From Rhodococcus yunnanensis NBRC 103083 (GTDB lineage Bacteria > Actinomycetota > Actinomycetes > Mycobacteriales > Mycobacteriaceae): a stretch of 64,000 nt of DNA. Positions 23,710-46,600 of the stretch are shown here, one piece after another. The DNA lies in contig NZ_BCXH01000009.1 of assembly GCF_001895005.1 (NCBI RefSeq), forward strand, positions 62,001 to 126,000, written 5' to 3'. Made by a program: the position numbers and the translations under genes. Numbering within the stretch: position 1 is the stretch's first letter; each line of letters starts with the position of its first letter. The notes beneath the pieces are model-generated. The model was not told the origin of the DNA. It was given only the letters and a program-made list of their open reading frames with translations, and ran no database searches.

Positions 23710-24942
23710 TCAGCGTCCGAACTCCGCGGTCCCGATGGTCCAGGCCTTGGCCTGCTCGCTGAGCGTGAAGCCCAGGCCTGGGCGATCCGACAGATGCATT
23801 CTGCCGTCACGGGTTTCGAGATGCTCGTTGAACAGCGGATCGAGCCAGTCGAAATGCTCGACCCACGTCTGCAGCGGGTAGACCGCCGCCAAGTGAAGGT
23901 GAATCTCCATCGCGAAGTGCGGGGCGAGCTGCAGATTGTGGTGCTCGGCGAGCGCGGCGAGTTTGAGGAACTGAGTGATACCACCGATGCGGGGGGCGTC
24001 GGGCTGAATGATGTCGACGGATCCGGCTTCGATCAACCGGACATGCTCACCGACGCTCGCCAGCATCTCTCCCGTGGCGATCGAGGTGTCGAAGTTTCGC
24101 GCGAGCATCGCGTGTCCTTCGGCGTCGTACGCATCGAGAGGCTCCTCGATCCAGACGAGGTCGAACTGTTCGAGGATGCGGCACATGCGGTTCGCGGTCG
24201 GGCGATCCCACTGCTGATTGGCGTCGACCATCAGTGGCACGTCGTCTCCGAGGTGCTCACGAACCGCCGTCACACGCGCGATGTCGGTGCGCCAATCCGG
24301 CTGTCCCACCTTGAGTTTGATGCCGCCGATGCCTGCCGCGAGTGATGCGGTCGCGTTGTCGAGCACCTCTTCGATGGGCGTGTGCAGGAATCCGCCGGAG
24401 GTGTTGTACGTCTGCACCGAGTCCCGTGTTGCACCGATGAGCTTGGCGAGCGGCAACTGCGCACGCTTCGCCTTCAGGTCCCACAGTGCGATGTCGATCG
24501 CTGCAATCGCCTGTGTCGCAACGCCGCTGCGCCCGACCGAGGCTCCAGCCCACTGCAACTTGGTCCAGATCTTGCCGATATCACTGGGATCCTCACCGAT
24601 GAGAACGGGTGCGATCTCCTGCGCATGCGCGAACTGCGCTGGGCCACCGGCGCGCTTGGAGTAGCTGAATCCGATTCCCTCGTGGCCCTGTTCGGTCCTG
24701 ATCTCCGCGAACAGGAAGGCCACCTCCGTCATCGCCTTCTGCCGGCCGGTCAGCACCTTGGCGTCACTGATCGGGTTCTTCAGCGGCAAGGTGATCGAGG
24801 ACAGCGTCACGTGCGCGATGCGGTCGATCGTCGCGTCGCCGGCGGCCAGTGCCTTGATGGCTGCGTCGGGGGCGGTGAGACCACTGGTCGGCTTCGAGGT
24901 GCTTGCGGATCCCACGGCAGGTGATTGCAAAGAGGTGGACAC
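23710..24942 (-). CDS. Enolase-superfamily sugar-acid dehydratase (talarate/galactarate dehydratase-like)
   Basis: This 410-residue mandelate-racemase-type enzyme has IKLKVGQPD (KxK), MVDANQQW (metal Asp), WIEEPLDAYD (metal Glu), ATGEMLAS (metal Glu) and LAPHFAMEIHLHLAA (catalytic His). The FSYSKRAGGPAQ loop resembles L-talarate/galactarate dehydratase, which forms 5-keto-4-deoxyglucarate from galactarate. The start is GTG 24942 with GGGAG upstream. The N-terminal 40 residues are low-complexity. Its promoter carries LysR box A. Confidence 0.82.
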   Translation of the reverse strand: MSTSLQSPAVGSASTSKPTSGLTAPDAAIKALAAGDATIDRIAHVTLSSITLPLKNPISDAKVLTGRQKAMTEVAFLFAEIRTEQGHEGIGFSYSKRAGGPAQFAHAQEIAPVLIGEDPSDIGKIWTKLQWAGASVGRSGVATQAIAAIDIALWDLKAKRAQLPLAKLIGATRDSVQTYNTSGGFLHTPIEEVLDNATASLAAGIGGIKLKVGQPDWRTDIARVTAVREHLGDDVPLMVDANQQWDRPTANRMCRILEQFDLVWIEEPLDAYDAEGHAMLARNFDTSIATGEMLASVGEHVRLIEAGSVDIIQPDAPRIGGITQFLKLAALAEHHNLQLAPHFAMEIHLHLAAVYPLQTWVEHFDWLDPLFNEHLETRDGRMHLSDRPGLGFTLSEQAKAWTIGTAEFGR

Positions 24943-24962
24943 GGCGCTTGTCTCCCTAGAAA

Positions 24963-24994
24963 GGCGGTGATACTGAACGGCGGTGATACTGAAC
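24963..24994. repeat. 16-bp tandem duplication in the 5' leader of the dehydratase gene
   Basis: GGCGGTGATACTGAAC is repeated exactly at 24963-24978 and 24979-24994, followed by GGCGG. It lies in the transcribed leader between the proposed promoter and the GTG start at 24942. No coding role is visible. Confidence 0.9.
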
Positions 24995-25013
24995 GGCGGG
25001 TGTGCTGGCTCAC

Positions 25014-25090
25014 ACGCTATTCTCCGGATCCATTCAAGTCCAAGACTATTTGTGGATGCGTTGATACAAGAACTGCATCAACGCATCCAC
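25014..25090 (-). promoter_or_regulatory. LysR box A and promoter for the galactarate-type dehydratase
   Basis: Minus-strand elements: TTGGAC at 25043-25038, an 18-nt spacer, and TAGCGT at 25019-25014. Upstream, perfect 14-bp arms at 25052-25065 and 25077-25090 (ATCAACGCATCCAC on the plus strand of the second) flank an 11-nt centre. This contains GTTGAT-N11-ATCAAC, the T-N11-A pattern of LysR-type sites, centred about 64 bp upstream of the expected transcription start. The same arrangement recurs at 38900, 38991 and 46533. Confidence 0.72.
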
Positions 25091-25095
25091 CGTGA

Positions 25096-26709
25096 TCAGT
25101 CCTGCGTGAGGGTGCCATCCACCCGGCGCCAGATGTGCTCGGGATTGCCGTCGGCGATCGCCGACGGCAGCAGCGCGTCGGGCACGTCCTGGTAACTGAC
25201 GGGCCGGAGAAATCGGTCGATGGCAAGGCTGCCGACCGAGGTGGTACGCGAATCACTGGTCGCCGGGAACGGTCCGCCGTGCACCATCGCGTGACCCACC
25301 TCGACTCCGGTCGGCCAGCCGTTGAACAGGATTCGGCCTGCCGTACGTTCGAGCTGTTCGACGAGCACCTCCGCGCTCGCGTGGTCACCGGGCACCGCAT
25401 GAACGGTGGCGGTCAACTGCCCTTCCAGTCCCTTGACGGCACCGAGAAGTTGATCGAGATCGTTGCATCGCACGACGAGCGACGTCGCACCGAACACCTC
25501 GGCGTGCAGCGATGGATCGGCCAGAAAGTTCTCGGCGTCGGTGACGAGAAGCTCGGGCAGGCCTTGAAACACGCACGAGCCGGGCTGACCGGTCGCGACG
25601 GAGTCGACGTCGGCATGTTCGCGCAGCGCCTGCTGTCCCGACGCGTATGCCGCGGCAATTCCCGGGGTGAGCATCGCAGCACCTGTCGACAACCCGATCG
25701 CCGTCGACGCCGCGGACAGGAACTCGCTCAATTCGGCGCCGACGACCGCGAACACGAGGCCGGGGTTGGTGCAGAACTGGCCGGATCCCATCGTCAGGGA
25801 AGCAGCGAAGGCCGCGCCCAGCTCGGACGCCGATTCCCTCAGCGCACCCGGCAACAGAAACACCGGATTGATGCTGCTCATCTCCGCGTACACGGGGATG
25901 GGTACATCTCGTCCGGCGGCGGCTCTGCACAGAGCAAGACCACCGCCTCGTGATCCGGTGAAGCCGACGGCGGCGACGACGGGGTCGGTCACGAGTTCGA
26001 CGCCGATGGTCTGGCCGAGTCCGTAGATCAGCGAGAACACCCCGCTGGGCAGGCCGTGCTCGACGACCGCGGCCGAGACCGCCCGGCCCACGAGCTCCGA
26101 AGTGCCGAGATGGGCGTCGTGTGCTTTGACGATGACGGGGCAGCCGGCTGCGAGTGCCGACGCAGTGTCGCCGCCTGCCACCGAGAACGCCAACGGAAAG
26201 TTGCTGGCCGAGAACACGACGACAGGTCCGAGCGGGATGTTACGCAGCCGAATGTCGCTGCGCGGAGCGGGTTTCCGATCCGGTTGCGCCGGATCGATGC
26301 GTGCGCCGTTCCAGCTTCCCTCACGGAGAACCGATGCGAACAACCTGAGCTGCCCGGTGGTCCGTCCTCGCTCGCCCTGGAGTCGTACGCGCGAGAGCCC
26401 GCTCTCGGCGGAAGCACGGTCGATCAGTTCGTCGCCCAGCGCGTCGATGTTGTCCGCGATCGATTCGAGGAACAGTGCGCGTGCTTCCGACGTCGTGCGC
26501 CGATAGGTGTCGAAGGCCTCGTCGGCCAATCTGGTTGCGTCCTGAACATCCTTGGTCGTCGCATAGTGGAAGGTCGGTCCGAGGGTCTCGCCGGAGGACG
26601 GATCGATGGCCTCGATGGCATCGCCCTCGCCCGTTCTCGCCGCACCGCCGATCAGAAAATCGCCCGTGATCGAGGTGTTGATCGTCGTGGTGTTGATCGT
26701 CGTGGTCAT
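25096..26709 (-). CDS. 2-oxoglutarate semialdehyde dehydrogenase (first copy)
   Basis: This 537-residue aldehyde dehydrogenase belongs to the NADP-type KGSADH group. It shows [32 protein letters not shown] (cofactor loop), [18 protein letters not shown] (general-base Glu) and [11 protein letters not shown] (catalytic Cys). It oxidises 2-oxoglutarate semialdehyde to 2-oxoglutarate, the last step of aldarate catabolism. The N-terminus holds a duplicated TTINT segment. It lies 8 nt downstream of the ABC ATPase gene and is probably co-transcribed with it. A paralogue is at 39131. Confidence 0.9.
   Translation of the reverse strand: MTTTINTTTINTSITGDFLIGGAARTGEGDAIEAIDPSSGETLGPTFHYATTKDVQDATRLADEAFDTYRRTTSEARALFLESIADNIDALGDELIDRASAESGLSRVRLQGERGRTTGQLRLFASVLREGSWNGARIDPAQPDRKPAPRSDIRLRNIPLGPVVVFSASNFPLAFSVAGGDTASALAAGCPVIVKAHDAHLGTSELVGRAVSAAVVEHGLPSGVFSLIYGLGQTIGVELVTDPVVAAVGFTGSRGGGLALCRAAAGRDVPIPVYAEMSSINPVFLLPGALRESASELGAAFAASLTMGSGQFCTNPGLVFAVVGAELSEFLSAASTAIGLSTGAAMLTPGIAAAYASGQQALREHADVDSVATGQPGSCVFQGLPELLVTDAENFLADPSLHAEVFGATSLVVRCNDLDQLLGAVKGLEGQLTATVHAVPGDHASAEVLVEQLERTAGRILFNGWPTGVEVGHAMVHGGPFPATSDSRTTSVGSLAIDRFLRPVSYQDVPDALLPSAIADGNPEHIWRRVDGTLTQD
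26674..26703. repeat. 15-bp tandem duplication at the start of the aldehyde dehydrogenase gene
   Basis: GGTGTTGATCGTCGT occurs twice in tandem (26674-26688, 26689-26703), adding one in-frame TTINT unit right after the start codon. The paralogue at 39131 lacks it. Confidence 0.9.
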
Positions 26710-26717
26710 CGGTGCTC

Positions 26718-27797
<1,080 letters not shown>

Positions 27798-27859
27798 GAT
27801 GGGTGGTACTCCTTCACCGGCAGGAACGTGCCGGACGGTCCGAGTGGAGGTCATAGGTG

Positions 27860-27873: not shown

Positions 27874-27957
27874 TGCGAGTCAAGATAGTGACTTCATTTC
27901 GAAGTATGTACTAACGTGATGCGCAGCACAAGAGATTCTGCGAAGAGACGAGGAAAC

Positions 27958-28839: not shown

Positions 28840-30021
28840 TCAGCGGGTGTATTCCGCGACGATCCGGCCCAGGGCGCCGAGTTGAGGCCGGTTGACGAGT
28901 CCGAGGTGGTAGAGATGCAGCTCGTTCGCCCCGGCCGCGACGGTGGCTGCGACGTGAGCGCCCACCTCGTCGAGCTTCTTGGGCGGCAGTACGGACACGT
29001 AGGCGCCCACGGACACATCACCGCCGACGAGGGTTCGGGTGTTCTCCACGACGGACACCGTCTCCGCTGTTCCCGGCCACGCGGACACCAGCACCGCGTC
29101 GACCTCGGACGGAACACCGGCAGTGACCGCGGGCGACGGACCCGTCTTCCACGGATCGGGGTGTCCGTGGAGGGTGACGCGAACATCGGGGGACTCGTTT
29201 CGGACCGCCGCCAGCACCTCGCGCCGCAGGTGGTCGGCATCGGCGTGACGAACCGCGAGCACCGCGCTCGCCTCGTCCGCGTCGAGCACATCGGTGATCG
29301 ACGATCCAGGCGACAGCGTGCCGCCCGACACCGCATCGATGCCGCCGCGCACCTTCGCGACGATCTTCTCCGCGTCGACGCCCCGGGCTGCCCATGCGGC
29401 CAACTCGCGGTCGGTGCAGCTGATGGACATCAGGGTGTCGCCGATTCCGGGGTACGCGCCGTCCGTCTTCTCGTGCGGCCCGACGTGCGCGAACCCGAGC
29501 TGGCCGGCCGCTTCGATCGACACTCCGTGCAGATCGACGCCTCGAACGGCCTCCGCGGCGAGGGTTCGTGCGTAGGCGACGATGCCCGGATGCCCTGGTG
29601 CGAGCGCGTACGGGTAGCGGTCGCCGAACGCGTTGACGACGGTGGCATCCGGATGAGCGTGGCCGAGAATTGTACTGTGCGACAGCACGATCCAGGCGTG
29701 CACCGCGAGTCCGGCACTGACGAGGAGTGCGGCGGCATCACCGAACGCATCCTCGGATCCGCCCCACGACGCACCTCGCGCGGCGATGTCGAGCCCGCCC
29801 CACGCCTCGGGTCGGATCGGCCGGTACAGCGCGGCGTGATGCGCGTCGACCACTTTGTGCTGCGGGTGCAGTGGAGTTGCGGCGCGGGTGGAGTGATAGC
29901 TGGCGGCCAGCGCGATCTCGCGGATTCCCAGCTCACGCACGCGGTCGACGAAGTGCGGGTCACCGAGCACGTCCCACGGATACGCGTGCGCGACGATGCG
30001 ATCGACAGAATTTTCGGACAT
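28840..30021 (-). CDS. Hypothetical protein, probable TIM-barrel hydrolase-like fold
   Basis: This 393-residue, alanine-rich protein starts at ATG 30021 behind AAGGG. It has repeated strand-helix patterns, conserved-looking acidic and histidine residues (HAYPWDVLGDPHF, ASYHSTRAATPLHP, DLHGVSIEAAGQLGFAH, YLYHLGL-type end) and no signal peptide. The look is of a TIM barrel related to glycoside-hydrolase-like proteins, but I recognise no family with known function. It is flanked by uronate dehydrogenase and an alpha/beta hydrolase gene, so a step in uronate, lactone or oligouronide processing is possible. Confidence 0.7.
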   Translation of the reverse strand: MSENSVDRIVAHAYPWDVLGDPHFVDRVRELGIREIALAASYHSTRAATPLHPQHKVVDAHHAALYRPIRPEAWGGLDIAARGASWGGSEDAFGDAAALLVSAGLAVHAWIVLSHSTILGHAHPDATVVNAFGDRYPYALAPGHPGIVAYARTLAAEAVRGVDLHGVSIEAAGQLGFAHVGPHEKTDGAYPGIGDTLMSISCTDRELAAWAARGVDAEKIVAKVRGGIDAVSGGTLSPGSSITDVLDADEASAVLAVRHADADHLRREVLAAVRNESPDVRVTLHGHPDPWKTGPSPAVTAGVPSEVDAVLVSAWPGTAETVSVVENTRTLVGGDVSVGAYVSVLPPKKLDEVGAHVAATVAAGANELHLYHLGLVNRPQLGALGRIVAEYTR

Positions 30022-35710: not shown

Positions 35711-35759
35711 TGTCAGTAGGTCAATACAGGCACACGGATGAAACTGCGTTCGAAATGAG

Positions 35760-35770
35760 GGACACTGTCC
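35760..35770. promoter_or_regulatory. Palindrome just before the IclR start codon
   Basis: GGACACTGTCC is an 11-bp palindrome with a central C, immediately upstream of ATG 35773. It could be an autoregulatory operator if 35773 is the true start. If the upstream ATG codons are used, it is coding sequence. Confidence 0.3.
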
Positions 35771-35772
35771 TC

Positions 35773-36558
35773 ATGGTGAACGACGTCAAAGAGACCACTA
35801 CTCCGGTCAAGTCCGCAGAACGCACCATTCACATCCTCGAGACCCTTGCCGCGTCCCCGACGCGCATGAGCCTCGGCGAGCTGCAGGAGGCGTGCAAGTA
35901 CCCCAGATCGTCCTTGCACGCGCTCCTGCGCACCCTCAAGGAACTGCGGTGGATCGAGGCCGACGACTCGGGTTCGCGCTACGGCATCGGCACACACGCC
36001 CTGCTCACCGGCACGTCGTACCTCGACAAGGATTCCGTGGTCGGCCGAGCCGCTGCGGTACTGGAGGCACTGCGCTCCGACGTGCGCCACACCGTGCACT
36101 TCGCGCGGCGCGACGAGGACCAGGTCATCTACCTCGCGAGCCGTGGGTCCAAGCTCGAGGTCAGGCGCATGCACCGAGTCGGACGCAAGCTTCCCTGCCA
36201 CGTCACCGCGCTCGGTCAGGCACTGCTCGCCGAACTCACCACCGACGAGGTCACCCAGCTACTCCCGAAACAGCTCGAGCGCTACACCGACAACACCATC
36301 GTCGACCGTGACGCACTGATCGTCGAGCTGGCCGAGGTTCGCAGGCGAGGATGGTCACTCGAGCAGGAACAGGGCACGCCGGGCGTGGTCTGCATCGCCA
36401 CCGTGGTCCCCTACCGCATCCCGGCGTCCGATGCGCTCAGCGTCTCGATGCCTGCCGAGGTGGCGTCGTATCCCGGCGAGCTCGAGCGCATCGCAGGCGT
36501 CCTGGTCAAGCACGCCGACGCATGGGCCCGCGAGCTCAGGGCCGAGGGCGTGCGCTGA
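35773..36558 (+). CDS. IclR-family transcriptional regulator
   Basis: About 261 residues from ATG 35773 (MVNDVKETTTPVKSAERT). The N-terminal winged helix reads MSLGELQEACKYPRSSLHALLRTL, and the C-terminal ligand domain holds RMHRVGRKLPCHVTALGQALLAEL and GTPGVVCIATVVPY. IclR proteins sense small organic acids and control catabolic operons. In-frame ATGs at 35710 and 35755 are alternatives; the first overlaps the enolase stop. It likely controls the importer and uronate genes. It converges with the next gene, overlapping 23 nt at the 3' ends. Confidence 0.9.
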   Translation: MVNDVKETTTPVKSAERTIHILETLAASPTRMSLGELQEACKYPRSSLHALLRTLKELRWIEADDSGSRYGIGTHALLTGTSYLDKDSVVGRAAAVLEALRSDVRHTVHFARRDEDQVIYLASRGSKLEVRRMHRVGRKLPCHVTALGQALLAELTTDEVTQLLPKQLERYTDNTIVDRDALIVELAEVRRRGWSLEQEQGTPGVVCIATVVPYRIPASDALSVSMPAEVASYPGELERIAGVLVKHADAWARELRAEGVR

Positions 36559-37486
36559 GGCCGGATATGTTCGCCGCGATGTCGGCAACCCGGCCGACGA
36601 ACGTGTGATGGGTGACCCCGGACGAATGCGGGGTCATCAGGATGTTCGGAAGCTCTTCGAACGGAAGAGAACTCGGCTTCCCGACGCCGTCGGCACCGGG
36701 GTACCGATACCAGACGTCGACGGCAGCTGCCGCAATTGCCCTGTCGGACAACGCGTCGAACAGTGCCTGCTCCTGAACCAGAGGACCTCGTCCCACGTTG
36801 ACGAGTACGCCGTCACGTCCGAGCCGGGCGAGCTCGTCGGCGCCGATCAGGCCGCGGGTGGCATCGTTCAACGGGGCCGATACGACGACGATGTCGGACC
36901 ATTCCATCAGTTTTCCGAGATCTGCGGTATCGGAGTTCCATTCCAGACGGCCGTTCGCGGTGCCGCTGCCGGTCACCGCGGCGCCTACGCAGCCGAACGC
37001 CTCGAACAACGTCCACGCTCGCTGACCGATGTGTCCGAAGCCCACGAATCCGACGCGCGCGCCGCTCAGCGACAGCGGCTGAGGGATCGACGGGTCGTAC
37101 ACGGAGGTCGAGAACACACCCGCTCGTAGCGCACGGTCCTGCTCCAAGAACTTACGACGCAGCATGACGGTGGCCGAGACGATGTATTCGGCGATGGACT
37201 GCTCGTGGTGAAAGGTGGTGCGGACGAGAACCTCCGGCGCCAATCCGGTCCTGTCGACATTGTCCGTCCCGGCGCCTGCGACATGTACCATCCGCAGCCG
37301 CGGCGCCGCAGCACCCATCGCAGCGCTGAACTTACCGCCGACATAGACGTCGGCGTCGGACAATTCCTCGAGGACGCGGGCCTCGTCGAACGGGACGACC
37401 CACACCACTTCGGCGCCGACCGGCAACCCGCTCTCGAACTGCGCCCTGTGCGGCAGCACGTTTCGATCGCCGACGACAATCTTCAT
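36536..37486 (-). CDS. D-isomer-specific 2-hydroxyacid dehydrogenase family protein
   Basis: About 316 residues with the NAD-binding motif VGFVGFGHIGQRAW and the family segments LVNVGRGPLVQEQALFDAL and ILMTPHSSGVTHHT. The catalytic Arg/Glu/His set is the usual one. It would reduce a 2-keto acid or oxidise a 2-hydroxy acid. ATG 37486 has AAGG upstream; ATG 37501, overlapping the gudD stop as ATGA, is the alternative. It is downstream of gudD in one operon, suggesting a side reaction on sugar-acid intermediates. Confidence 0.87.
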   Translation of the reverse strand: MKIVVGDRNVLPHRAQFESGLPVGAEVVWVVPFDEARVLEELSDADVYVGGKFSAAMGAAAPRLRMVHVAGAGTDNVDRTGLAPEVLVRTTFHHEQSIAEYIVSATVMLRRKFLEQDRALRAGVFSTSVYDPSIPQPLSLSGARVGFVGFGHIGQRAWTLFEAFGCVGAAVTGSGTANGRLEWNSDTADLGKLMEWSDIVVVSAPLNDATRGLIGADELARLGRDGVLVNVGRGPLVQEQALFDALSDRAIAAAAVDVWYRYPGADGVGKPSSLPFEELPNILMTPHSSGVTHHTFVGRVADIAANISGLSARPRP

Positions 37487-37497
37487 GGGCGCGACCT

Positions 37498-38844
37498 TCA
37501 TCGCAGGAGGGCGGGGCGCTTGCTGTCGAATGCCCACCCGTCGATCAGGTACTGCATGCCGATCGAATCGTCTCGTGCACCGAGACCTTCACGCTGGTAG
37601 AGCTCGTGGGCTGCATCGACGCGCTCCCAGTCGAGTTCGACGCCGAGGCCCGGCTTGTCGGGGACCGTCAGGTAACCCCCCTCGATCTCGAACGGCTCCT
37701 TGGTCACTCGCTGACCGTCCTGCCAGATCCAGTGCGTGTCGATCGCGGTGATGTTTCCCGGTGCCGCGGCCGCGACGTGGGTGAACATCGCAAGCGATAC
37801 GTCGAAGTGGTTGTTGGAGTGCGATCCCCACGTCAAACCCCAGGCGTCGCACAACTGCGCGACACGCACGGAACCGTTCATCGTCCAGAAGTGCGGGTCG
37901 GCGAGCGGGATGTCGACGGCTCCGGAGCGGATCGTGTGACCCATTTCCCGCCAGTCGGTGGCGATCATGTTGGTTGCCGTCGGCAACCCGGTGGCGCGCT
38001 TGAACTCCGACATGACCTCGCGGCCGGAGAAACCCCCTTCGGGGCCTACCGGATCCTCGGCGTAGGCGAGCACGTCACGCAGGCCGCGGCAAGTCTCGAT
38101 CGCATCCTTCAGCAGCCATCCACCGTTGGGGTCCAACGTGATTCGTGCGTCCGGGAATCGCTCGGCCAGTGCGGTGACGGCTGCAGCCTCCTCGGCCGCA
38201 GGCAGTACCCCACCCTTGAGCTTGAAGTCCTCGAATCCGTAGCGCGCGTGCGCAGCTTCGGCGAGGCGTACGACGGCGTCGGGTGTCAGCGCTTCCTCGT
38301 GCCGCACCCGCAGCCACTCGTCGCCGCCCACCGCTTCGTCGGCGGAGGTTCGGTACGCGAGGTCCGTCTTACTCGCGTCGCCGACGAAGAACAGGTACCC
38401 GAGAGCTTGGACCTTCTCTCGCTGCTGGCCGTCGCCCAGCAGCGCCGCGACGGTGACGCCGAGGTGCTGTCCGAGCAGGTCGAGCAGTGCAGATTCGACG
38501 GCCGTGACGGCGTGCACCGCGATACGCAGGTCGAACGTCTGGGCGCCGCGTCCTCCCGAGTCCCGATCGGCGAAGGCCGAACGCATCGACGCAAGTACCG
38601 CGTTGTACGTGCCGATGCTCGCGCCCTCCACGAGAGTCCGTGCGTCCTCGAGGCAGCGACGGATCGGTTCGCCGCCCGGCACCTCTCCGACACCGACGCT
38701 GCCCTCCGAATCGGTGAGCACGACGAGGTTCCTCGTGAAGTACGGAGCATGTGCGCCACTGAGATTGAGCAACATGCCGTCGTGACCGGCGATCGGGATC
38801 ACTCGCATCTCGGCGATGACGGGGGTGGCGTTCTGCGCGTTCAT
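37498..38844 (-). CDS. gudD: Glucarate dehydratase
   Basis: This 448-residue enolase-superfamily enzyme has the GudD pattern: [12 protein letters not shown] (KxK), TLDPNGGW (metal Asp), [10 protein letters not shown] (metal Glu), ATNMIATDW and [14 protein letters not shown] (catalytic His region). The N-terminal [16 protein letters not shown] loop is also typical. It converts D-glucarate to 5-keto-4-deoxyglucarate. ATG 38844 has GAAGG upstream. Its promoter carries LysR box B and is divergent from the aldehyde dehydrogenase operon. Confidence 0.93.
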
Positions 38845-38899
38845 GGCTCGACCTTCTATCGGCGTGCTTCTACGGGCGGAGTGACTCGGCTCACGCCGA

Positions 38900-38967
38900 A
38901 CTGTAGGCCCGGTCGTCGATTCGTGTCCAAGACCGTAAACGCATCGACCGATACCGCAACCGCATCG
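38900..38967 (-). promoter_or_regulatory. LysR box B and gudD promoter
   Basis: On the minus strand, TTGGAC (38930-38925) and TACAGT (38905-38900) are 19 nt apart. Upstream, GAT (38966-38964), 11 nt, then ATC (38952-38950) forms a T-N11-A LysR-type box. It is the same distance from TTGGAC as in box A. The box is centred about 65 bp before the predicted start of transcription. Confidence 0.68.
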
Positions 38968-38990: not shown

Positions 38991-39059
38991 ATCGATACCG
39001 ATCGTGTATCAACAGCGCTGCTTATTGACTTGGACAAGTATCGATCGGCCTTCTACCGT
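38991..39059 (+). promoter_or_regulatory. LysR box C and promoter of the aldehyde dehydrogenase-kdgD operon
   Basis: TTGGAC at 39030-39035 and TACCGT at 39054-39059 are 18 nt apart. GAT (38994-38996), 11 nt, then ATC (39008-39010) forms a T-N11-A box, with TATCAAC at 39007-39013 exactly 15 nt upstream of CTTGGAC. This matches boxes A and B. The two divergent boxes B and C lie about 40 bp apart. Confidence 0.68.
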
Positions 39060-39130
39060 GAGTAGCTATGAGTCAGGTCACGTCCACGGGGCGGACCGAG
39101 AACATCGCAGCACGAGAACAGGAGTCATCC

Positions 39131-40729
39131 ATGACGGCATCGTTGACGCAGTCCACCGAACTCACCGGCAAGATGATCATCGCCGGACAGGCAGTGCAGG
39201 GTTCGGGAACCGCGGTTCACGGAATCGATCCGAGCACCGGGGACTCGCTCGAACCTACCTACCACCACGGCGACCTCGGCCACGTCGACGCAGCCACTGC
39301 CGCTGCCGCCGCCGCGTTCGACGACTACCGGTCCACCTCCTCCGAGACCCGCGCGCAGTTCCTCGACGCCATCGCCGACAACATCACAGCCCTCGGTGAG
39401 ACGCTCATCGCGCGGGCTGTCGCAGAGTCGGGACTGCCCGTCGGTCGCATCACCGGCGAGGTCGGCCGCACCACCGGACAGCTTCGTCTCTTCGCATCGG
39501 TCCTGCGCGAGGGCAGCTGGAACGGCGCGCGCATCGACCCGGCGCTCCCCGATCGTGCTCCTGTGCCCCGCGCCGACATCCGCCAGCGCAAGGTCGCACT
39601 CGGACCGGTCGTCGTCTTCGGCGCCAGCAACTTTCCGCTCGCCTTCTCCGTCGCCGGCGGCGACACCGCATCCGCACTCGCTGCCGGCTGCCCCGTCATC
39701 GTCAAGGCGCACGACGCCCACCCCGGTACGTCCGAACTGGTCGGTCGCGCCATTGCCGACGCCGTGGCCTCCACCGGGATGCCGTCGGGAACGTTCTCAC
39801 TGCTCTACGGCTCCGGCCGGTCTCTCGGCACCGCACTCGTCACCGACCCACGCGTCAAGGCAGTCGGCTTCACCGGTTCACGCTCGGGCGGTACCGCTCT
39901 CGTCGCGGCAGCGGCAGGACGACGCGAACCCATTCCGGTGTACGCCGAGATGAGTTCCATCAACCCGGTCTTCGTCCTCGACAACGCACTGGGCACCCGC
40001 GGCGCGGAACTGGGCCGCGCGTTCGTGGCATCGCTGACTCTCGGTTCCGGGCAGTTCTGCACCAACCCCGGCCTCGTCATCGCTGTCGACGGCCCAGGCC
40101 TCGACTCGTTCGTGGCCGCCGCACAAGCAGCGGTGTCCGAGACGGCACCGACGACGATGCTGACCCCGAACATCGCCGCGAGCTACGCCAGCGGCGTGCA
40201 GGAACTCGCCGCGTCCGCTACCGAAATTGCCCGAGGCACCGAGTCCGACGCGCCGAACGCATGCCGCGCCGCACTTTTCGTCACCGATGCCGACAATTTC
40301 GTCACCTCGGAGATCGAGCAACAAGAGGTGTTCGGCGCCTCGAGCCTCATCGTCAAGTGCACCGATGCACAGCAGGTTCGCGACGTGGCAGCGCTGCTGG
40401 AAGGCCAGCTCACCGCGACCATTCACGTCGACGACGCCGACCACCCCGAAGCAGCCGCGTTGCTGTCGGTCCTCGAACTCAAAGCCGGACGCATCCTGTT
40501 CGACGGGTGGCCCACCGGCGTCGAGGTCGGTCACGCGATGGTCCACGGCGGACCGTTCCCCGCCACCTCCGATTCACGTACCACCTCCGTCGGATCCCTT
40601 GCGATCGAACGGTTCCTCCGCCCCGTTGCGTACCAGGACGTCCCGGCTGCCCTGCTTCCCAGTGCACTTGCCGACGGAAATCCCGACAAGATCTGGCGCC
40701 GCATCGACGGCCACCTCACCCAAGACTGA
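39131..40729 (+). CDS. 2-oxoglutarate semialdehyde dehydrogenase (second copy)
   Basis: This 532-residue aldehyde dehydrogenase shares long identical stretches with the copy at 25096: [38 protein letters not shown] and [11 protein letters not shown] (catalytic Cys). It oxidises 2-oxoglutarate semialdehyde, the product of KdgD encoded just downstream. ATG 39131 has CAGGAG 7 nt upstream and is preferred to the 63-nt longer frame. It is the first gene of the LysR-box-C operon. Confidence 0.9.
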
Positions 40730-40759: not shown

Positions 40760-41686
40760 ATGCTCGACGGAGTCCTTTTCTTCCCAGTCACCCCGTTCAC
40801 CGAGACCGGTGAGGTCGACTACGACCTGCTGGCCGCACACGTCGCCAAGGGCGTCGACGCAGGCCCCGGCGGAGTGTTCATCGCCTGCGGCACAGGTGAA
40901 TTCCACGCACTCGACCTGGAAGAGTTCGGCAAGATCGTCCGCACGGCAGTCGACGTCATCGCCGGCCGCGTTCCCGTCTACGCCGGCGCAGGCGGATCGG
41001 TGGCACAGGCCAAGGCGTTCGCGCGCAGCGCGAAAGCGAACGGTGCCGACGGCATCCTGCTGCTTCCGCCGTACCTCGTCACGATGCCGCAGGCCGGACT
41101 CGTCAGTTACACCAAGGCCGTCGCCGACGCCACCGATCTGCCGGTCATCGTCTACAACCGGGGCAACGCTCGATTCACCGAGGCGTCCGCCGTCGAGGTG
41201 GCCCAGTTCCCCACCGTCGTCGGATTCAAGGACGGCACAGGCGATCTCGATCAGGTCGGCCGCATCGTGCGGGCCGTGTTGGATGCGCTGGAGCCGTCGG
41301 GCAAGCCTTTCCAGTTCTTCAACGGTCTTCCCACCGCCGAGGTGTCGCAGCAGGCGTACAAGGCCATCGGCGTCACCCTGTACTCCTCGGCGACGTTCGC
41401 GTTCGCGCCGGAGTTGGCCCTCGCCTTCTACCAGTCGCTCGAGAGCGGTAACGACAAGCTCACTGCCGCATTGCTTCGCGAGTTCTTCCACCCCCTCGTG
41501 CGCTTGCGCGACCAGGTTCCCGGGTACGCGGTTGCCCTCATCAAGGCAGGTGTCACCCTGGAAGGCATCGAGGCAGGACCGGTCCGCCCGCCGCTGATCG
41601 ACATCAGCACCCAGCATCTCGCCGAACTGACCGCGATCGTCGCTGCCGGGCGCGCTGTACTCGCGGACGAGCTCGCGGTGCATTGA
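40760..41686 (+). CDS. kdgD: 5-dehydro-4-deoxyglucarate dehydratase
   Basis: This 308-residue DapA-family enzyme carries the Schiff-base Lys157 (VVGFKDGTGD), catalytic Tyr132 (VIVYNRGNARFT) and GTGEFHALDLEE, as in KdgD. It dehydrates and decarboxylates 5-keto-4-deoxyglucarate to 2-oxoglutarate semialdehyde, which the upstream dehydrogenase then oxidises. A CAGGAG precedes ATG 40760. The stop overlaps the next start (TGATG). Confidence 0.95.
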   Translation: MLDGVLFFPVTPFTETGEVDYDLLAAHVAKGVDAGPGGVFIACGTGEFHALDLEEFGKIVRTAVDVIAGRVPVYAGAGGSVAQAKAFARSAKANGADGILLLPPYLVTMPQAGLVSYTKAVADATDLPVIVYNRGNARFTEASAVEVAQFPTVVGFKDGTGDLDQVGRIVRAVLDALEPSGKPFQFFNGLPTAEVSQQAYKAIGVTLYSSATFAFAPELALAFYQSLESGNDKLTAALLREFFHPLVRLRDQVPGYAVALIKAGVTLEGIEAGPVRPPLIDISTQHLAELTAIVAAGRAVLADELAVH

Positions 41687-42954
41687 TGTCCGAGACCATC
41701 CGCATCACCGGAGTTCGGATCACCCCGGTGGCATTCGTCGATCCACCGCTGCTCAACACGGTCGGTGTGCATCAGCCGTACGCGTTGCGGGCGATCATCC
41801 AGCTCGATACCGACGCCGGCATCGTCGGCCTCGGTGAAACCTATGCCGATACTGCGCACCTCGCACGCCTCGACGCTGCCGCAGAAGCCATCACCGGTCT
41901 CGATGTGTTCGCACTCAACGCTATTCGTGCGGCCATCGACACACAGTTGGCATCGTCGACCATCACCGGCGGTGACGGTGTCGCCGGCATGATCACCACG
42001 GCGAGTACGACCGATCGGGTCCTCTCACCGTTCGAGGTCGCGTGCCTCGACGTGCAGGGCAAGGCACTCGGGCGTCCGGTGTCGGATCTGCTCGGCGGAA
42101 AGGTCAGAGACGCAGTCCCGTTCAGCGCCTACCTGTTCTACAAGTGGGCAGCTCACCCGGGCCAGGAGCCGGACGAGTGGGGCGAGGCGGTCGATCCCGA
42201 CGGTCTCGTCCGGCAGGCGCAGAAGATGATCGGCGAGTACGGGTTCGGAGCCATCAAGGTCAAGGGCGGTGTCTTCCCACCCGACGAGGAGATCGCCGGG
42301 ATCAAGGCGCTGCGCACGGCTTTCCCCGATCTTCCGCTCAGACTGGATCCGAACGCGGCCTGGACCGTCGACACCTCCATCAGGGTGGCGTCGGAGCTCG
42401 ACGGCATCGTCGAGTACCTCGAGGATCCGACACCGGGGCTCGACGGCATGGCCGAGGTCGCGCGCGAGGCGAAGATGCCTCTTGCGACCAACATGTGCGT
42501 CGTCGCGTTCGATCAGCTCAAGCCTGCAGTGCTGAAGGACTCGGTGCAGGTCGTGCTGTCGGATCATCACTACTGGGGCGGACTGCAGCGTTCACGCCTG
42601 CTCGCCGGTGTCTGCGACAACTTCGATCTCGGCCTGTCGATGCATTCGAACAGCCATCTCGGGATCAGCTTGGCGGCCATGGTGCATCTCGCAGGCGCGA
42701 CGCCGAATCTGACGTACGCGTGCGACACGCATTGGCCGTGGAAGAACGAGGACGTGATCGTGCCCGGCGTGCTGAACGTCGTGGACGGAGCGGTCGCGGT
42801 TCCCACCGGTCCGGGTCTGGGCATCGAGATCGACGAGGACGCACTCGCGGCGCTGCACCAGCAGTACCTCGACTGCGGCATCCGTGACCGTGACGACACC
42901 GGGTACATGAAGAGCATCGACCCGACGTTCGAGAACACCTGCCCTCGCTGGTGA
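41686..42954 (+). CDS. Glucarate-dehydratase-like enolase-superfamily enzyme
   Basis: This 422-residue enzyme has GAIKVKGGVFP (KxK), LRLDPNAAW, YLEDPTPG, LATNMCVVAFD and LSMHSNSHLGISLAAM (His region), the same pattern as GudD. It is a second aldarate dehydratase, coupled to kdgD. It may take glucarate or a related aldarate such as galactarate or idarate. ATG 41686 overlaps the kdgD stop. A hairpin terminator follows at 42982. Confidence 0.88.
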   Translation: MSETIRITGVRITPVAFVDPPLLNTVGVHQPYALRAIIQLDTDAGIVGLGETYADTAHLARLDAAAEAITGLDVFALNAIRAAIDTQLASSTITGGDGVAGMITTASTTDRVLSPFEVACLDVQGKALGRPVSDLLGGKVRDAVPFSAYLFYKWAAHPGQEPDEWGEAVDPDGLVRQAQKMIGEYGFGAIKVKGGVFPPDEEIAGIKALRTAFPDLPLRLDPNAAWTVDTSIRVASELDGIVEYLEDPTPGLDGMAEVAREAKMPLATNMCVVAFDQLKPAVLKDSVQVVLSDHHYWGGLQRSRLLAGVCDNFDLGLSMHSNSHLGISLAAMVHLAGATPNLTYACDTHWPWKNEDVIVPGVLNVVDGAVAVPTGPGLGIEIDEDALAALHQQYLDCGIRDRDDTGYMKSIDPTFENTCPRW

Positions 42955-42981
42955 CGGCTGGGTGAGGAACCTGCACACAGG

Positions 42982-43013
42982 CAGCGCCGGCCGATTCGTA
43001 TCGGACGGCGCTG
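42982..43013 (+). terminator. Rho-independent-type hairpin after the aldarate operon
   Basis: A 14-nt stem (42982-42995 with 43000-43013) with one mismatch and a TCGT loop is followed by TTTGTGCGTT. It lies 27 nt past the stop of the dehydratase gene and before the LysR gene. Confidence 0.75.
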
Positions 43014-43079
43014 TTTGTGCGTTACCTTGATACTCGATCCAGTCGAAAAGCGTCTGCGACGATTCAAGGAGTGGATGAG

Positions 43080-43973
43080 TTGTTTTCGCTCAACCGTCTG
43101 ACATGCTTCATCGCCGTCGCGGAGGAGCTTCACTTCGGTCGAGCGGCCGAACGGCTCCACATGACACAGCCCCCGCTGAGTCGGCAGATCCAGCAGCTGG
43201 AGAACGAAGTCGGCGTGCAACTCATCGACCGCACCAGCAGGTCGGTCACACTCACCGCGGCAGGCGTCGCGTTCCTGCCCGACGCCAGGCGCATCCTCAA
43301 TCTCGCCGAGGGTGCCGTCCTGACGGTCCGACGCGTACCCACCGGCGATCTGGGGACGGTCGTCGTCGGATTCACCGGGGCGTCGGCGCATGCGGTGCTG
43401 CGTCCGCTGCTCGAGAAGGCACGCGAGGAGCTTCCCGACGTCAAGATCGTGTTGCGCGAGATGGTGTCGGCCGTGCAGATGGAATCGCTCGCCATCGGGG
43501 ACCTCGATCTCGGTCTGGCGCGTCCTCCGCTGAAGCGGCCGGGTATCGCCTCGCGGCCGGTGTTGCACGAAGCCCTCGTCGCGGCACTGCCTGCATCGCA
43601 TCCGCTGGCCGACCGCGACCAGCTGACCGTGGAGGACTTCGACGATCAGCCGATCATCATGTATTCACCCGTCGATGCACGCTATTTTCACGAGCTGCTG
43701 ATCAGTACGTTCACCATCGTCGGTGTCACACCGCGGTACGTGCAGTACGTGACGCAGGTGCACACGATGCTGGTGCTGGTGCGCTCCGGGATCGGTACAG
43801 CGCTGGTACCCGAGTCCGCCAGAACGATGCAGCCGGAGGGCGTGGTGTTCCGGCCCGTCGACACCACCCCGAAGCGTCCGGTGGAACTGCATGCCGCCTG
43901 GCGTCCCGACAACGACAATCCTGCGTTGCACCGCTTCATGTCCGACGTCCTACCCGCGCGCGAGTGGAACTGA
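43080..43973 (+). CDS. LysR-family transcriptional regulator, candidate master of the aldarate genes
   Basis: About 297 residues with the N-terminal LysR helix-turn-helix (LHFGRAAERLHMTQPPLSRQIQQLE) and a C-terminal co-inducer domain. TTG 43080 (reading FSLNRLTCFIAVAEE after the start) has AAGGAG 8 nt upstream; GTG 43071 is the alternative. It lies immediately after the aldarate operon. The four T-N11-A boxes of the regulon fit LysR binding, so it is the best candidate activator. A half-site TTGATACTC at 43027-43035 hints at autoregulation. Confidence 0.9.
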   Translation: MFSLNRLTCFIAVAEELHFGRAAERLHMTQPPLSRQIQQLENEVGVQLIDRTSRSVTLTAAGVAFLPDARRILNLAEGAVLTVRRVPTGDLGTVVVGFTGASAHAVLRPLLEKAREELPDVKIVLREMVSAVQMESLAIGDLDLGLARPPLKRPGIASRPVLHEALVAALPASHPLADRDQLTVEDFDDQPIIMYSPVDARYFHELLISTFTIVGVTPRYVQYVTQVHTMLVLVRSGIGTALVPESARTMQPEGVVFRPVDTTPKRPVELHAAWRPDNDNPALHRFMSDVLPAREWN

Positions 43974-43976
43974 CAC

Positions 43977-44345: not shown

Positions 44346-44545
44346 CGATCCATTCTAACGGGATAGTGTTCGGTGATCGACTGTCGACGCGTAAACGCAA
44401 ACAGCTCTATCGCGACCGCTGGTGCGCATGCCCAGGGTCGGCCATAGTGCCTCCACGATTGCTGAATCACGTCCTTCCGACTGGGAATGTGGATCGTCAC
44501 CAAGTCGCGTTGCTATCAGATTGTATCCGGGTGTGTCAGGTCAGA

Positions 44546-45040
44546 ACTAATAGAGGGGCATACGATGCGCAGGCCCGCGATGCGATCGTCACACCGATCG
44601 CCAGGCTCAACCAATCCATCAGCCCCGAAGCGATCGACTACATCGTCGCAGCAAGTGATGGATACCCGTACTTTCTTCAGGTGTTCGGTCACGAGCTCTG
44701 GCAAGCAGCCCAACAGTCCCCGTTCACCCTCGCCGACGCCGTGGACGCCGTGGAAACCGGTCACGCCTCACTCGATTCCGGCTTCTACAGCTCGAGGTGG
44801 CTGCGCGCCACCGAAGCCGAAAAGCGGTACCTGGTTGCCATTGCACGCAGCGGAACCGACACCCCTCGGACGGCAGCCCTTGCCGAGGTCCTCGGATCGA
44901 ACCCGCAATCGATGGCGCCGCACCGCGACTCATGCATCCGCAAAGGCCTGATCTGGTCTCCCTCACGCGGACTAGTTGCCTTCACCGTCCCGGGAATGGC
45001 CGACTTTATCCGCCGTCAACCCAACGCCCCCATCGTCTGA
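44546..45040 (+). pseudogene. Remnant of an ATP-binding (AAA/STAND-type) protein, C-terminal part only
   Basis: The segment from about 44546 encodes the C-terminal region of large ATP-binding proteins: IVTPIARLNQSISPEAIDYI, ASDGYPYFLQVFGHELWQAA, ALAEVLGSNPQSMAPHRDSCIRKGLIWSP and VAFTVPGMADFIRR. The P-loop ATPase half that should precede it is absent. The upstream frame (from 44366) shows no family sequence. It is most likely a 5'-truncated relic without a proper start. The 44346-44545 stretch holds no other gene that I can see. Confidence 0.75.
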
Positions 45041-45068
45041 CCCGAAAAGCATTTAACCTTGGGTCAAA

Positions 45069-45464
45069 CTATTTCGGCAGGCCCACCGGCGGTTTGACTG
45101 CCACGACGGGGCTCTGCGATTCGAGAATGACGCGCTGAGAGATACTGCCCATCAGCAGCTTTCCGACGGGCGAGCGGCGCCGGATGCCGATGACGACGAG
45201 GTCGGTTCCCTCCGCGTAGGACAGGTCGATGAGATTGTCGGCGTGCGATCGGCCCTTCTCGTTGTCGTGGACCGTCACTGCGACCCCGGCGGCGTCGGAT
45301 TCGTCGCGGGCGGATTCGATCGTCGCGCCGAATCCTTCCTCGGACGCCGAATCCTCCTCCGCGACAATGATCAAGTCCGTTCCGCGCTGGAGAGCTTCAC
45401 CGAACGCGAACGGTAGTGCGCCCTTGCCTTCGGCGGTCGGCGAGTAGCCGACGACGACGGTCAT
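45069..45464 (-). CDS. Universal stress protein (UspA family)
   Basis: This 131-residue single-domain protein starts VVVGYSPTAEGKGAL and has the ATP-binding motif VIGIRRRSPVGKLLMGSISQRVILESQSPVVAVK. It is translationally coupled (ATGA) to the hydroxyacid dehydrogenase gene upstream. It would respond to stress or starvation in the cytoplasm. Confidence 0.9.
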   Translation of the reverse strand: MTVVVGYSPTAEGKGALPFAFGEALQRGTDLIIVAEEDSASEEGFGATIESARDESDAAGVAVTVHDNEKGRSHADNLIDLSYAEGTDLVVIGIRRRSPVGKLLMGSISQRVILESQSPVVAVKPPVGLPK

Positions 45465-46456
45465 CGTGTCACCGGCGTGATGAGGCTGCCGTCGGCGAGG
45501 AACCGGTCGAGATTCTCGAGCGTCAACGCTTCCATCGCGGCCCGCGTTTCGACCGTGCCGCTGCCCACGTGGGGCAGCAGAACGACGTTGTCCAGTGTCG
45601 TGAGCGCGGCCGGCACCGAGGGCTCGTGGGCGAACACGTCGAGCCCCGCTCCTGCCAGTCCGCCGCCTGCGAGCAATTCCACCAACGCCTCCTCGTCCAC
45701 GACGCTTCCGCGTGCCACGTTGATCAGGTAACCCTGCGGACCGAGCGCGTCCAGTACCTCACGATCGACGAGGTGCCGAGTGCCCGACCCGCCGGACGCT
45801 GCGACGATCAGAATGTCGACGCCGCCTGCGAGTGCAGCCGCCGTCGGGAAGTACGTGTACGGAGAATCCGCGATCTCGTTGCGGTTGTGGTAGCTGATGG
45901 GGCAACGGAATCCGCTGAGCCGGTCGGCGATCGCCGTTCCGATTCGGCCCAGACCGATGATGCCCACGCGCTTGCCGGTGACCTGGCGTGTCAACGGCGT
46001 ATTGCCTTCGCTGATCCAGCGCCCCTCGCGCACGTAGCGATCGGAGAACGACACCTGCCGCAGCGCATCGATGACCAGTCCGACGGCGAGGTCGGCCACA
46101 CAGTCCGTCAGAACATCCGGAGTGTTGCTCACACCGATGCCACGTTCACGTGCCGCGTCGACGTCCGTCGCGTCGTATCCGACGCCGAAGTGGACGATGG
46201 CGCCGAGGTTGGGCAGCCCGGCGATCAGTTCGGCGTCGACGCCGGTCCGTCCCGAGGTGACCGCTGCGGTGATCGACTCACCGTGGAGCGCGAGGAAACC
46301 GGTTCGCTCGTCTCCGTCCGGGAGAACCAGGGCGTCGTAGTCACCTGCGAGGGTGTCCATCAACGACGGCTTCAGCGGCCCGACTCTGAGCACTCGACCG
46401 GTGCGCGCCGAATTCCGTTGCGCCCCATCGGTTTTTTCCGAACCAACCGTTGTCAT
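45461..46456 (-). CDS. D-isomer-specific 2-hydroxyacid dehydrogenase
   Basis: This 331-residue enzyme has the NAD motif VGIIGLGRIGTAIADRL, the family segments YLINVARGSVVDEEALVELL and VVLLPHVGSGTVETR, and the usual catalytic Arg/Glu/His set. It resembles glyoxylate/hydroxypyruvate reductases. ATG 46456 has GGAG 8 nt upstream and is preferred over the longer frame to 46591. Its promoter carries LysR box D, which ties it to the aldarate regulon. Confidence 0.9.
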   Translation of the reverse strand: MTTVGSEKTDGAQRNSARTGRVLRVGPLKPSLMDTLAGDYDALVLPDGDERTGFLALHGESITAAVTSGRTGVDAELIAGLPNLGAIVHFGVGYDATDVDAARERGIGVSNTPDVLTDCVADLAVGLVIDALRQVSFSDRYVREGRWISEGNTPLTRQVTGKRVGIIGLGRIGTAIADRLSGFRCPISYHNRNEIADSPYTYFPTAAALAGGVDILIVAASGGSGTRHLVDREVLDALGPQGYLINVARGSVVDEEALVELLAGGGLAGAGLDVFAHEPSVPAALTTLDNVVLLPHVGSGTVETRAAMEALTLENLDRFLADGSLITPVTR

Positions 46457-46532
46457 TGCCCAGCTCCTCGCCGTCGTCGATACCGCCCATGACCTGTCCA
46501 CAGGTTTCGATCCTGCGTGCGCGTCTTCCGTT

Positions 46533-46600
46533 ACGTTATTCCGGTCGACAAATACCTGTCCAACACGGAAATAACATGGATTGATACTCAAACAGCATCA
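46533..46600 (-). promoter_or_regulatory. LysR box D and promoter of the hydroxyacid dehydrogenase-USP operon
   Basis: On the minus strand, TTGGAC at 46563-46558 and TAACGT at 46538-46533 are 19 nt apart. GAT (46599-46597), 11 nt, then ATC (46585-46583) forms a T-N11-A box at the same distance from TTGGAC as in boxes A-C. It lies in the 380-nt gap between 46457 and 46836, which otherwise holds the divergent peptide-importer promoter and no gene that I can see. Confidence 0.68.

What the first reader, a model, noticed from the sequence alone, without database searches (positions are those of the whole stretch)
24942..46600. Four-member LysR-type regulon: GAT-N11-ATC boxes at fixed distance from TTGGAC promoters
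Four separate promoters share one layout. Each has GAT, 11 nt, ATC, then TTGGAC, an 18-19 nt spacer and TAnnGT. Sites are A 25014-25090 (minus), B 38900-38967 (minus), C 38991-39059 (plus) and D 46533-46600 (minus). The derived consensus is GATGCnGTTnnnGTATCAAy. In all four the ATC half is the same distance from TTGGAC, and the box centre falls about 65 bp upstream of the predicted transcription start. That is the canonical position of the LysR recognition site (T-N11-A). The targets are a galactarate-type dehydratase, gudD, the aldehyde dehydrogenase-kdgD-dehydratase operon and a hydroxyacid dehydrogenase-USP pair: one pathway plus one unexpected unit. The LysR gene at 43080 is the best candidate.
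Basis: partly seen in the sequence, partly recalled or inferred. Interest (0 to 1): 0.85.

Follow-up and report, generated by a model that had tools for sequence, protein, structure and literature searches.

The report
LysR switch for sugar-diacid breakdown
Four promoters for breaking down the plant-derived sugar acids glucarate and galactarate share one rigid control sequence, which is kept beside the same kind of LysR regulator gene from actinobacteria to proteobacteria, so this is very probably a real but untested genetic switch of a well-known type.

Summary
The box GATRC-N7-GTATC lies exactly 19 nt before TTGGAC at all four places; in the 6.37 Mb genome the composite has four exact matches, these four, and none at 1 mismatch. 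Among 37 same-genus genomes it occurs (up to 1 mismatch) in the same 25 that carry an ortholog of the LysR gene at 43080, and in none of the other 12. It stays in front of gudD, the ALDH-kdgD-dehydratase operon, the hydroxyacid dehydrogenase-USP pair and galD, also where galD has moved. Beside LysR homologs in 80 named loci the spacer is 19 in 59, and any other spacer from 5 to 40 occurs in at most one. The IclR gene nearby is not an obligatory partner. The LysR reading is supported. Two things go beyond it: TTGGAC lies across a second and third overlapping LysR site, shown by half-site repeats at +21 and +32 bp (weaker outside actinobacteria), and the "unexpected" dehydrogenase unit is a conserved member. 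The layout matches the published sliding-dimer model. New member of a known kind; binding, inducer and transcription starts are untested.

The parts
25014..25079 (-). Promoter A, in front of the L-talarate/galactarate dehydratase gene: box 25063-25079, TTGGAC 25038-25043, TAGCGT 25014-25019; site 2 at 25042-25058, site 3 at 25031-25047
   Evidence: site at up to 2 mismatches upstream of galD in 15 of 17 relatives fetched first; the other two and three fetched later have versions with 0-3 mismatches of 17 positions
23710..24942 (-). galD, L-talarate/galactarate dehydratase (target of A)
   Evidence: NCBIfam NF047820 equivalog, 699 bits against cut-off 500
38900..38966 (-). Promoter B, in front of gudD: box 38950-38966, TTGGAC 38925-38930, TACAGT 38900-38905; site 2 at 38929-38945, site 3 at 38918-38934
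   Evidence: kept at up to 2 mismatches in 18 of 18 relatives fetched
37498..38844 (-). gudD, glucarate dehydratase (target of B), followed by an overlapping 2-hydroxyacid dehydrogenase gene 36536-37537
   Evidence: TIGR03247 823.7 bits against cut-off 828.7, so just below; Pfam MR_MLE_C
38994..39059 (+). Promoter C, in front of the ALDH-kdgD-dehydratase operon: box 38994-39010, TTGGAC 39030-39035, TACCGT 39054-39059; site 2 region 39015-39031 (left half missing), site 3 at 39026-39042
   Evidence: kept at up to 2 mismatches in 19 of 19 relatives fetched; site-2 half absent in 20 of 20 C promoters
39068..40729 (+). aldehyde dehydrogenase, presumed alpha-ketoglutarate semialdehyde dehydrogenase (the true start may be 39131)
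   Evidence: best NCBIfam hits are aldehyde dehydrogenases, all shown below cut-off; function inferred from place
40760..41686 (+). [quoted passage not shown]
   Evidence: NF002958 subfamily 421.5 bits against cut-off 278; the equivalog TIGR03249 is below its cut-off, 306.1 against 373.95
41683..42954 (+). second glucarate-dehydratase-like enolase-superfamily enzyme
   Evidence: TIGR03247 255.5 bits, below cut-off; MR_MLE domains
43080..43973 (+). LysR-type regulator (TTG start, 125 nt after the preceding gene), the presumed regulator of A-D
   Evidence: HTH_1 and LysR_substrate domains; orthologs of at least 73% identity in 25 of 37 same-genus genomes, the same 25 that hold the composite
46533..46599 (-). 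Promoter D, in front of the hydroxyacid dehydrogenase-USP pair: box 46583-46599, TTGGAC 46558-46563, TAACGT 46533-46538; site 2 at 46562-46578, site 3 at 46551-46567
   Evidence: kept at up to 2 mismatches in 15 of 15 relatives fetched
45461..46456 (-). D-2-hydroxyacid dehydrogenase, glyoxylate-reductase-like (target of D); the longer open frame to 46591 would overlap the promoter
   Evidence: 2-Hacid_dh_C; best NCBIfam hit glyoxylate reductase, below cut-off; start codon read
45069..45464 (-). universal stress protein, overlapping the dehydrogenase gene by 4 nt
   Evidence: Pfam Usp

Best explanation
The four promoters form the regulon of the LysR-type regulator at 43080, a switch for breakdown of hexaric acids (glucarate, galactarate) to alpha-ketoglutarate. 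One dimer of the tetramer holds the box (site 1, centre about -65). [quoted passage not shown] TTGGAC, the -35 element, lies across both. Without inducer the protein would sit on sites 1 and 3 and cover the -35 element. An aldarate or a breakdown product would move the second dimer one turn upstream to site 2, freeing the -35 element and placing the protein beside RNA polymerase. The 19-nt spacing is fixed because the tetramer must reach both places. Shown here: sequence, spacing, conservation, co-occurrence, half-site repeats. Inferred: binding, direction of the shift, inducer, start sites. The LysR gene is probably the last gene of operon C and so would raise its own level (inferred from its place).
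For: Composite: 4 exact matches in the genome, all at these promoters. In 37 same-genus genomes it is present (up to 1 mismatch) in 25, the same 25 with a LysR ortholog of at least 73% identity. Kept in front of the same four units; galD keeps a box of its own where it lies beside the gudD operon (8 genomes) or far away (G036, G023). Outside the genus, of 80 named LysR loci, 30 have the 17-position motif (TTRGAC) at 0, 46 at up to 1 and 60 at up to 2 mismatches; spacings shifted by 1-3 nt give at most 1 of 80; 51 of the 60 also hold gudD, gudD2, kdgD or galD homologs. A pattern-only search of 396 genomes of the phylum gave 4 genomes, this one among them, and 0 control matches; the 3 new sites lie beside LysR and/or aldarate-type genes. 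Half-site repeats at +21 (left) and +32 (right) exceed 2000 of 2000 column permutations in the 54 distant sites, and neither was used to pick them. Closest solved relatives by sequence include BenM and CatM, which bind ATAC-N7-GTAT with site 2 over the -35 region (PMC6628147, passages).
Against: No binding or expression data. galD is found in the same 25 genomes and kdgD in 26 of 37, so co-occurrence in the genus does not separate 'bound by LysR' from 'travels with the pathway'. In the 21 non-actinobacterial sites the right-half repeat is weak and scores better at +21 than at +32. Promoter C has the site-2 half in 0 of 20 cases and promoter A in 8 of 16; A has the site-3 half in 11 of 16. Twenty of 80 LysR loci lack the motif at up to 2 mismatches, 11 of them with aldarate genes. 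An exact box-N19-TTGGAC without the site-3 half also lies beside a LysR paralog of 34-41% identity in other species, so the layout is not exclusive to this regulator.
Confidence: 0.86

Rival explanations
1. The IclR-type regulator at 35713-36558, at the end of the neighbouring ABC-transporter genes, binds the boxes.
For: It is encoded in the same cluster, and IclR-family proteins often govern catabolic genes (general knowledge).
Against: A close homolog is found in 16 of 37 genomes at E up to 1e-60. It is missing in 10 of the 25 genomes that hold the boxes and present in one (G026) that has neither a LysR ortholog nor the composite. GAT-N11-ATC near -65 is the LysR layout.
Confidence: 0.03
2. 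The shared sequence is a strong promoter type (TTGGAC plus upstream AT-rich element), kept for RNA polymerase alone.
For: TTGGAC is nearly invariant among the genus sites, although these were searched for with it; positions 28-30 are A/T rich in the distant sites.
Against: The exact composite occurs 4 times in 6.37 Mb and is tied to one pathway. The dyad 19 nt upstream is kept, and GnAT after TTGGAC is present in all B, C and D promoters (55 of 55) and 11 of 16 A promoters; a promoter alone does not need these.
Confidence: 0.04
3. A different LysR-type protein of the genome, a paralog of the one at 43080, is the main regulator, or the two share the sites.
For: Paralogs of 37-38% identity exist in the genome. 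In ten other genomes an exact box-N19-TTGGAC occurs at another place, and in the five examined it lies beside a LysR paralog.
Against: Presence of the composite matches the 43080 ortholog exactly (25 of 25 and 0 of 12), while paralogs also occur in genomes without the composite, e.g. G005, G018, G019, G034. In other taxa the motif lies in loci fetched for the 43080-type LysR; that sampling was by LysR, the pattern-only search was not.
Confidence: 0.06

Closest known systems
BenM/CatM promoters of Acinetobacter (benA, catB)
   Same: LysR family; site 1 ATAC-N7-GTAT with T-N11-A; three sites; [quoted passage not shown]
   Different: Other pathway and presumably other inducer; here site 3 has a conserved right half in actinobacteria and the box-TTGGAC spacing is kept over many taxa
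OxyR/IlvY/CynR group of gammaproteobacterial LysR systems
   Same: Three inverted repeats; OxyR sites centred at -66, -44 and -35; repeats 2 and 3 mutually exclusive; sites 1+3 without and 1+2 with inducer (PMC5002191, abstract and passages read). Here about -65, -44, -33
   Different: Those were intergenic regions between a LysR gene and its target in gammaproteobacteria; here four promoters in one genome, with the LysR gene apparently at the end of one target operon
Known regulators of glucarate/galactarate use: CdaR (PucR type, E. coli) and GguR (GntR type, Halomonas)
   Same: Control genes of glucarate/galactarate use (PMC7652997 and PMC5507952, passages read)
   Different: Other protein families; neither is LysR-type

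Membership tests
LysR-type transcriptional regulator (protein at 43080) | N-terminal HTH_1 and C-terminal LysR substrate-binding domain | tested here: met
   PF00126 and PF03466 above cut-off
LysR-type transcriptional regulator (protein at 43080) | tetramer that binds DNA and responds to a small inducer | not testable with these tools
   needs purified protein
LysR-type regulated promoter | T-N11-A dyad centred near -65 | tested here: met
   GAT-N11-ATC at all four; centre about 65 nt before a predicted, not mapped, start
LysR-type regulated promoter | activation site(s) near -44 and over the -35 element, on the same face as the box | tested here: inconclusive
   left half repeats at +21, right half at +32 bp in the pooled distant sites, but the right half is weak outside actinobacteria and promoter C lacks the site-2 half in 20 of 20
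LysR-type regulated promoter | regulator gene divergent from its target (common, not obligatory) | tested here: not met
   here the LysR gene is co-directional, 125 nt after operon C; in many of the 80 other loci it is divergent with the site just upstream of it
Oxidative hexarate pathway to alpha-ketoglutarate | glucarate/galactarate dehydratase, kdgD and a semialdehyde dehydrogenase | tested here: met
   galD above its equivalog cut-off, kdgD above its subfamily cut-off but below the equivalog one, gudD 5 bits below; the aldehyde dehydrogenase is assigned by place only

The most novel reading that the evidence does not exclude
The promoters carry an evolutionary imprint of both resting places of the second LysR dimer, one helical turn apart. 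Promoter C, which always has the site-3 half (20 of 20) and never the site-2 half (0 of 20), while B and D always have both, would be tuned to a higher inducer threshold. The conserved dehydrogenase-USP unit would be an undescribed step or salvage reaction of aldarate breakdown.
Probability: 0.3. Interest if true: 0.55.

Novelty: new member of a known kind. Interest (0 to 1): 0.42.

Why it matters
It offers a ready-made regulon in which the place of the second LysR dimer can be read from sequence and tested promoter by promoter. A structural paper, in passages read here, says no conserved ABS'' motif had yet been deduced for the family (PMC4730206); a footprinting paper of the same year did describe such repeats for six gammaproteobacterial regulators (PMC5002191). 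It also names a candidate glucarate/galactarate sensor for actinobacteria and many proteobacteria, and ties an unassigned hydroxyacid dehydrogenase to this pathway.

Tried and rejected
Box alone as evidence: rejected, because GATRC-N7-GTATC has 34 matches in the genome, within a factor of about three of my composition estimate; the tool's backward control (2 matches) is a poor control for a palindrome, so I did not use it.

IclR as the regulator: rejected on distribution. Promoter-only reading: rejected.

Ten genus genomes hold the exact box-N19-TTGGAC at a further place; five were examined and lie beside a LysR paralog without the GnAT half. I took this as a related system, not a fifth target. 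Some single 1-mismatch matches elsewhere in the genus (for example G003:C31, G006:C1:2023493, G022:C1:2216004) look like chance and were not examined; the backward control gave 3 matches in 37 genomes.

Main gene regions were fetched for 19 of the 24 relatives that hold the LysR ortholog; G007, G012, G023, G033 and G035 were not fetched there, although G023's galD region was. One of the 80 LysR proteins (L171) was left out of the tree because its translation was short.

Literature: searches (glucarate/galactarate with LysR and related terms; open-licence PubMed Central papers only) listed no paper that I could recognise, from titles, abstract starts and the passages named below, as describing a LysR regulator of this pathway. 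The listings were capped (for example 25 of 46, 15 of 72, 15 of 52), and subscription papers were not searchable. Searches were for LysR mechanism. Papers seen in passages only: PMC10204090, PMC5507952, PMC4834489, PMC6628147, PMC5749847, PMC4730206, PMC4495286, PMC7652997, PMC9162365; PMC5002191 abstract and passages. All other papers: listing only.

Not done: structure prediction, fold search, RNA-family search. The name of the genus was not established.
Full report
What was claimed.

The observation. All four sites are present as described. In promoter orientation each reads GATRC-N7-GTATC, exactly 19 nt, TTGGAC, 18 or 19 nt, TAnnGT. No other such box or promoter pair lies in the window. 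In the 6,372,293-base genome GATRC-N7-GTATC-N19-TTGGAC has four exact matches, these four; none with 1 mismatch and three with 2; up to 3 mismatches there are 75 against 25 in the backward control. My hand estimate from base composition is about 0.002 exact matches by chance. The box alone is not significant (34 matches).

The genes. A precedes an L-talarate/galactarate dehydratase (699 bits, cut-off 500), B precedes gudD (823.7 bits, cut-off 828.7), C precedes an aldehyde dehydrogenase, kdgD and a second glucarate-dehydratase-like enzyme, with the LysR gene 125 nt further. D precedes a D-2-hydroxyacid dehydrogenase and an overlapping universal stress protein. The frame at 45461-46591 starts inside promoter D; the ATG at 46456 is the likely start.

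Within the genus. Of 37 genomes, 25 hold the composite at up to 1 mismatch (backward control 3 matches), and the same 25 hold a LysR ortholog of at least 73% identity (which searched 61 genomes including these 37). The other 12 have neither. In the loci fetched (19 of 24 such relatives, plus some further regions), counting relatives only: C kept in 19 of 19, B in 18 of 18, D in 15 of 15, A in 15 of 17 at up to 2 mismatches. The two galD genes without such a site, and three galD genes fetched later, have a version with 0 to 3 mismatches (of 17 scored positions, TTRGAC) directly upstream. galD keeps a box of its own where it lies beside the gudD operon in eight genomes, and on another contig or some 600 kb away in G036 and G023. 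Caution: galD is found in the same 25 genomes and kdgD in 26, so this distribution links the box to the pathway as well as to LysR. The IclR gene is found in 16 of 37 at E up to 1e-60, missing from 10 of the 25 and present in one genome without composite or LysR ortholog.

Beyond the genus. They include Williamsia, Mycolicibacterium, Actinomadura, Streptomyces, Kribbella, Arthrobacter, Nocardioides, Geodermatophilus, Bradyrhizobium, Methylobacterium, Burkholderia and Pseudomonas. A box (up to 1 mismatch) followed by exact TTRGAC stands at spacer 19 in 59 of 80 loci; spacers 9, 20 and 36 have one locus each and all others from 5 to 40 none; local shuffles give 0.14 loci per spacer. With 17 scored positions, 30 of 80 loci match at 0, 46 at up to 1 and 60 at up to 2 mismatches; spacers changed by 1-3 nt give at most 1 of 80. 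Of the 60, 51 hold a homolog of gudD, gudD2, kdgD or galD; of the 20 without motif, 11 do (Fisher p = 0.011, not corrected for relatedness). By the record titles 35 of 36 actinobacterial loci and 25 of 44 others have the motif at up to 2 mismatches. TTAGAC replaces TTGGAC in 20 of 61 loci with a site, mostly Pseudomonas and relatives. A tree of 88 proteins puts the window's LysR in a well-supported set of ten with Williamsia and Mycobacteriaceae proteins (100/99); the label 'site' needs 12 changes against 20.4 in shuffles. A pattern-only search of 396 genomes of the phylum found 4 genomes, this one included, with 7 exact sites and 0 control matches. The three new sites lie beside LysR, kdgD and ALDH homologs (L226), beside ALDH and hydroxyacid dehydrogenase homologs (L227, no LysR within its 3 kb), and between LysR and galD homologs (L229).

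The second and third site. The profile of 58 sites (54 non-redundant distant ones plus the window's four) shows, apart from box and TTGGAC (both used for selection), conserved AT at positions 22-23 and GnAT(C) at 44-48. Comparing the box halves with other offsets gives one positive offset each: left half at +21, right half at +32 bp. With the 54 distant sites alone, 0 of 2000 column permutations reach either value. Neither feature was used to choose the sites. In the 33 actinobacterial sites both are strong (1 and 0 of 2000). In the 21 others the left half holds (14 of 2000), but the right half is weak and best at +21 (87 of 2000). The layout is therefore site 1 (0-16, about -65), site 2 (21-37, about -44) and site 3 (32-48, about -33), with TTGGAC at 36-41 across the last two. 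Positions relative to the start assume a start about 7 nt after the -10 box. Published LysR systems have this geometry: OxyR repeats at -66, -44, -35 (PMC5002191, passages); BenM/CatM site 2 over the -35 region (PMC6628147, passages); RBS, ABS' and ABS'' in the sliding-dimer model (PMC4730206, passages). The closest solved structures by sequence are 7w06, BenM (3k1n and others), 1ixc (CbnR, name recalled) and CatM (2h98). The segment QPPLSRQIQ, in the recognition-helix region by recall, is identical to BenM in the alignment printed there.

Promoter classes. In the genus set AT at 22-23 is present in 19 of 19 B, 16 of 16 D, 8 of 16 A and 0 of 20 C promoters; GnAT at 44-47 in 19 of 19 B, 16 of 16 D, 20 of 20 C and 11 of 16 A promoters. 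C thus has the site-3 half but not the site-2 half, which predicts a different response.

Mechanism proposed. Without inducer: sites 1 and 3, -35 covered. With inducer: the second dimer moves one turn to site 2 and transcription starts. Sequence layout and conservation are shown; occupancy, shift and inducer are inferred.

What is known. No paper on a LysR regulator of this pathway was recognised in the capped listings of searches; only open-licence full texts were searched. Known regulators of the pathway in the papers seen are CdaR (PucR type) and GguR (GntR type).

Verdict. Observation confirmed, interpretation supported and sharpened; a new regulon of a known kind, with an unusually clear and widely kept site layout.

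Noticed in passing
window 38880-38895 (-), between the -10 box of promoter B and gudD: A CRP-like palindrome (GTGA-N6-TCAC; consensus TGTGA-N6-TCACA recalled) lies just after the -10 box. In the 110 nt after TTGGAC a match with up to 2 of 10 mismatches is present in 19 of 19 B, 14 of 20 C, 7 of 16 A and 0 of 16 D promoters, window included; 16 of 19 B promoters have 1 mismatch. No chance level was computed. gudD may also be under carbon-source control.
   Followed up: partly
window 25052-25090: At promoter A the box is embedded in a 17-bp inverted repeat (94%, 5-nt gap), directly after the stop of the upstream aldehyde dehydrogenase gene; it could also form a transcript-end hairpin. The 15 nt upstream of the box in relatives do not continue the repeat (by eye).
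   Followed up: partly
window 24959-25006: Three tandem copies (69-100% alike) of a 16-bp unit in the leader between promoter A and galD.
   Followed up: no
window 28840-30021 (-): A 393-aa protein, 81-84% identical in six relatives whose fetched cluster holds it, without any Pfam or NCBIfam match at E up to 0.001: an unassigned protein inside a uronate/aldarate cluster.
   Followed up: no
L128-L131, L139 (other species of the genus): Exact box-N19-TTGGAC beside a LysR paralog of 34-41% identity, without the GnAT half after TTGGAC; ten genomes hold such a site, five were examined.
   Followed up: partly
L180, L184, L193, L204, L217, L221, L223, L225: Homologs of the promoter D dehydrogenase (42-53% identity) lie within about 250 nt of the LysR homolog in seven of these Burkholderia-type and Pseudomonas-type loci, and 1.3 kb away in L217 (Bordetella), suggesting a shared but unassigned role in aldarate use.
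   Followed up: partly
G006, G032, G021 near galD: A second kdgD gene, about 63% identical, sits between the second aldehyde dehydrogenase and promoter A in G006 and G032, and next to galD in G021, where the matched stretch has one in-frame stop.
   Followed up: no
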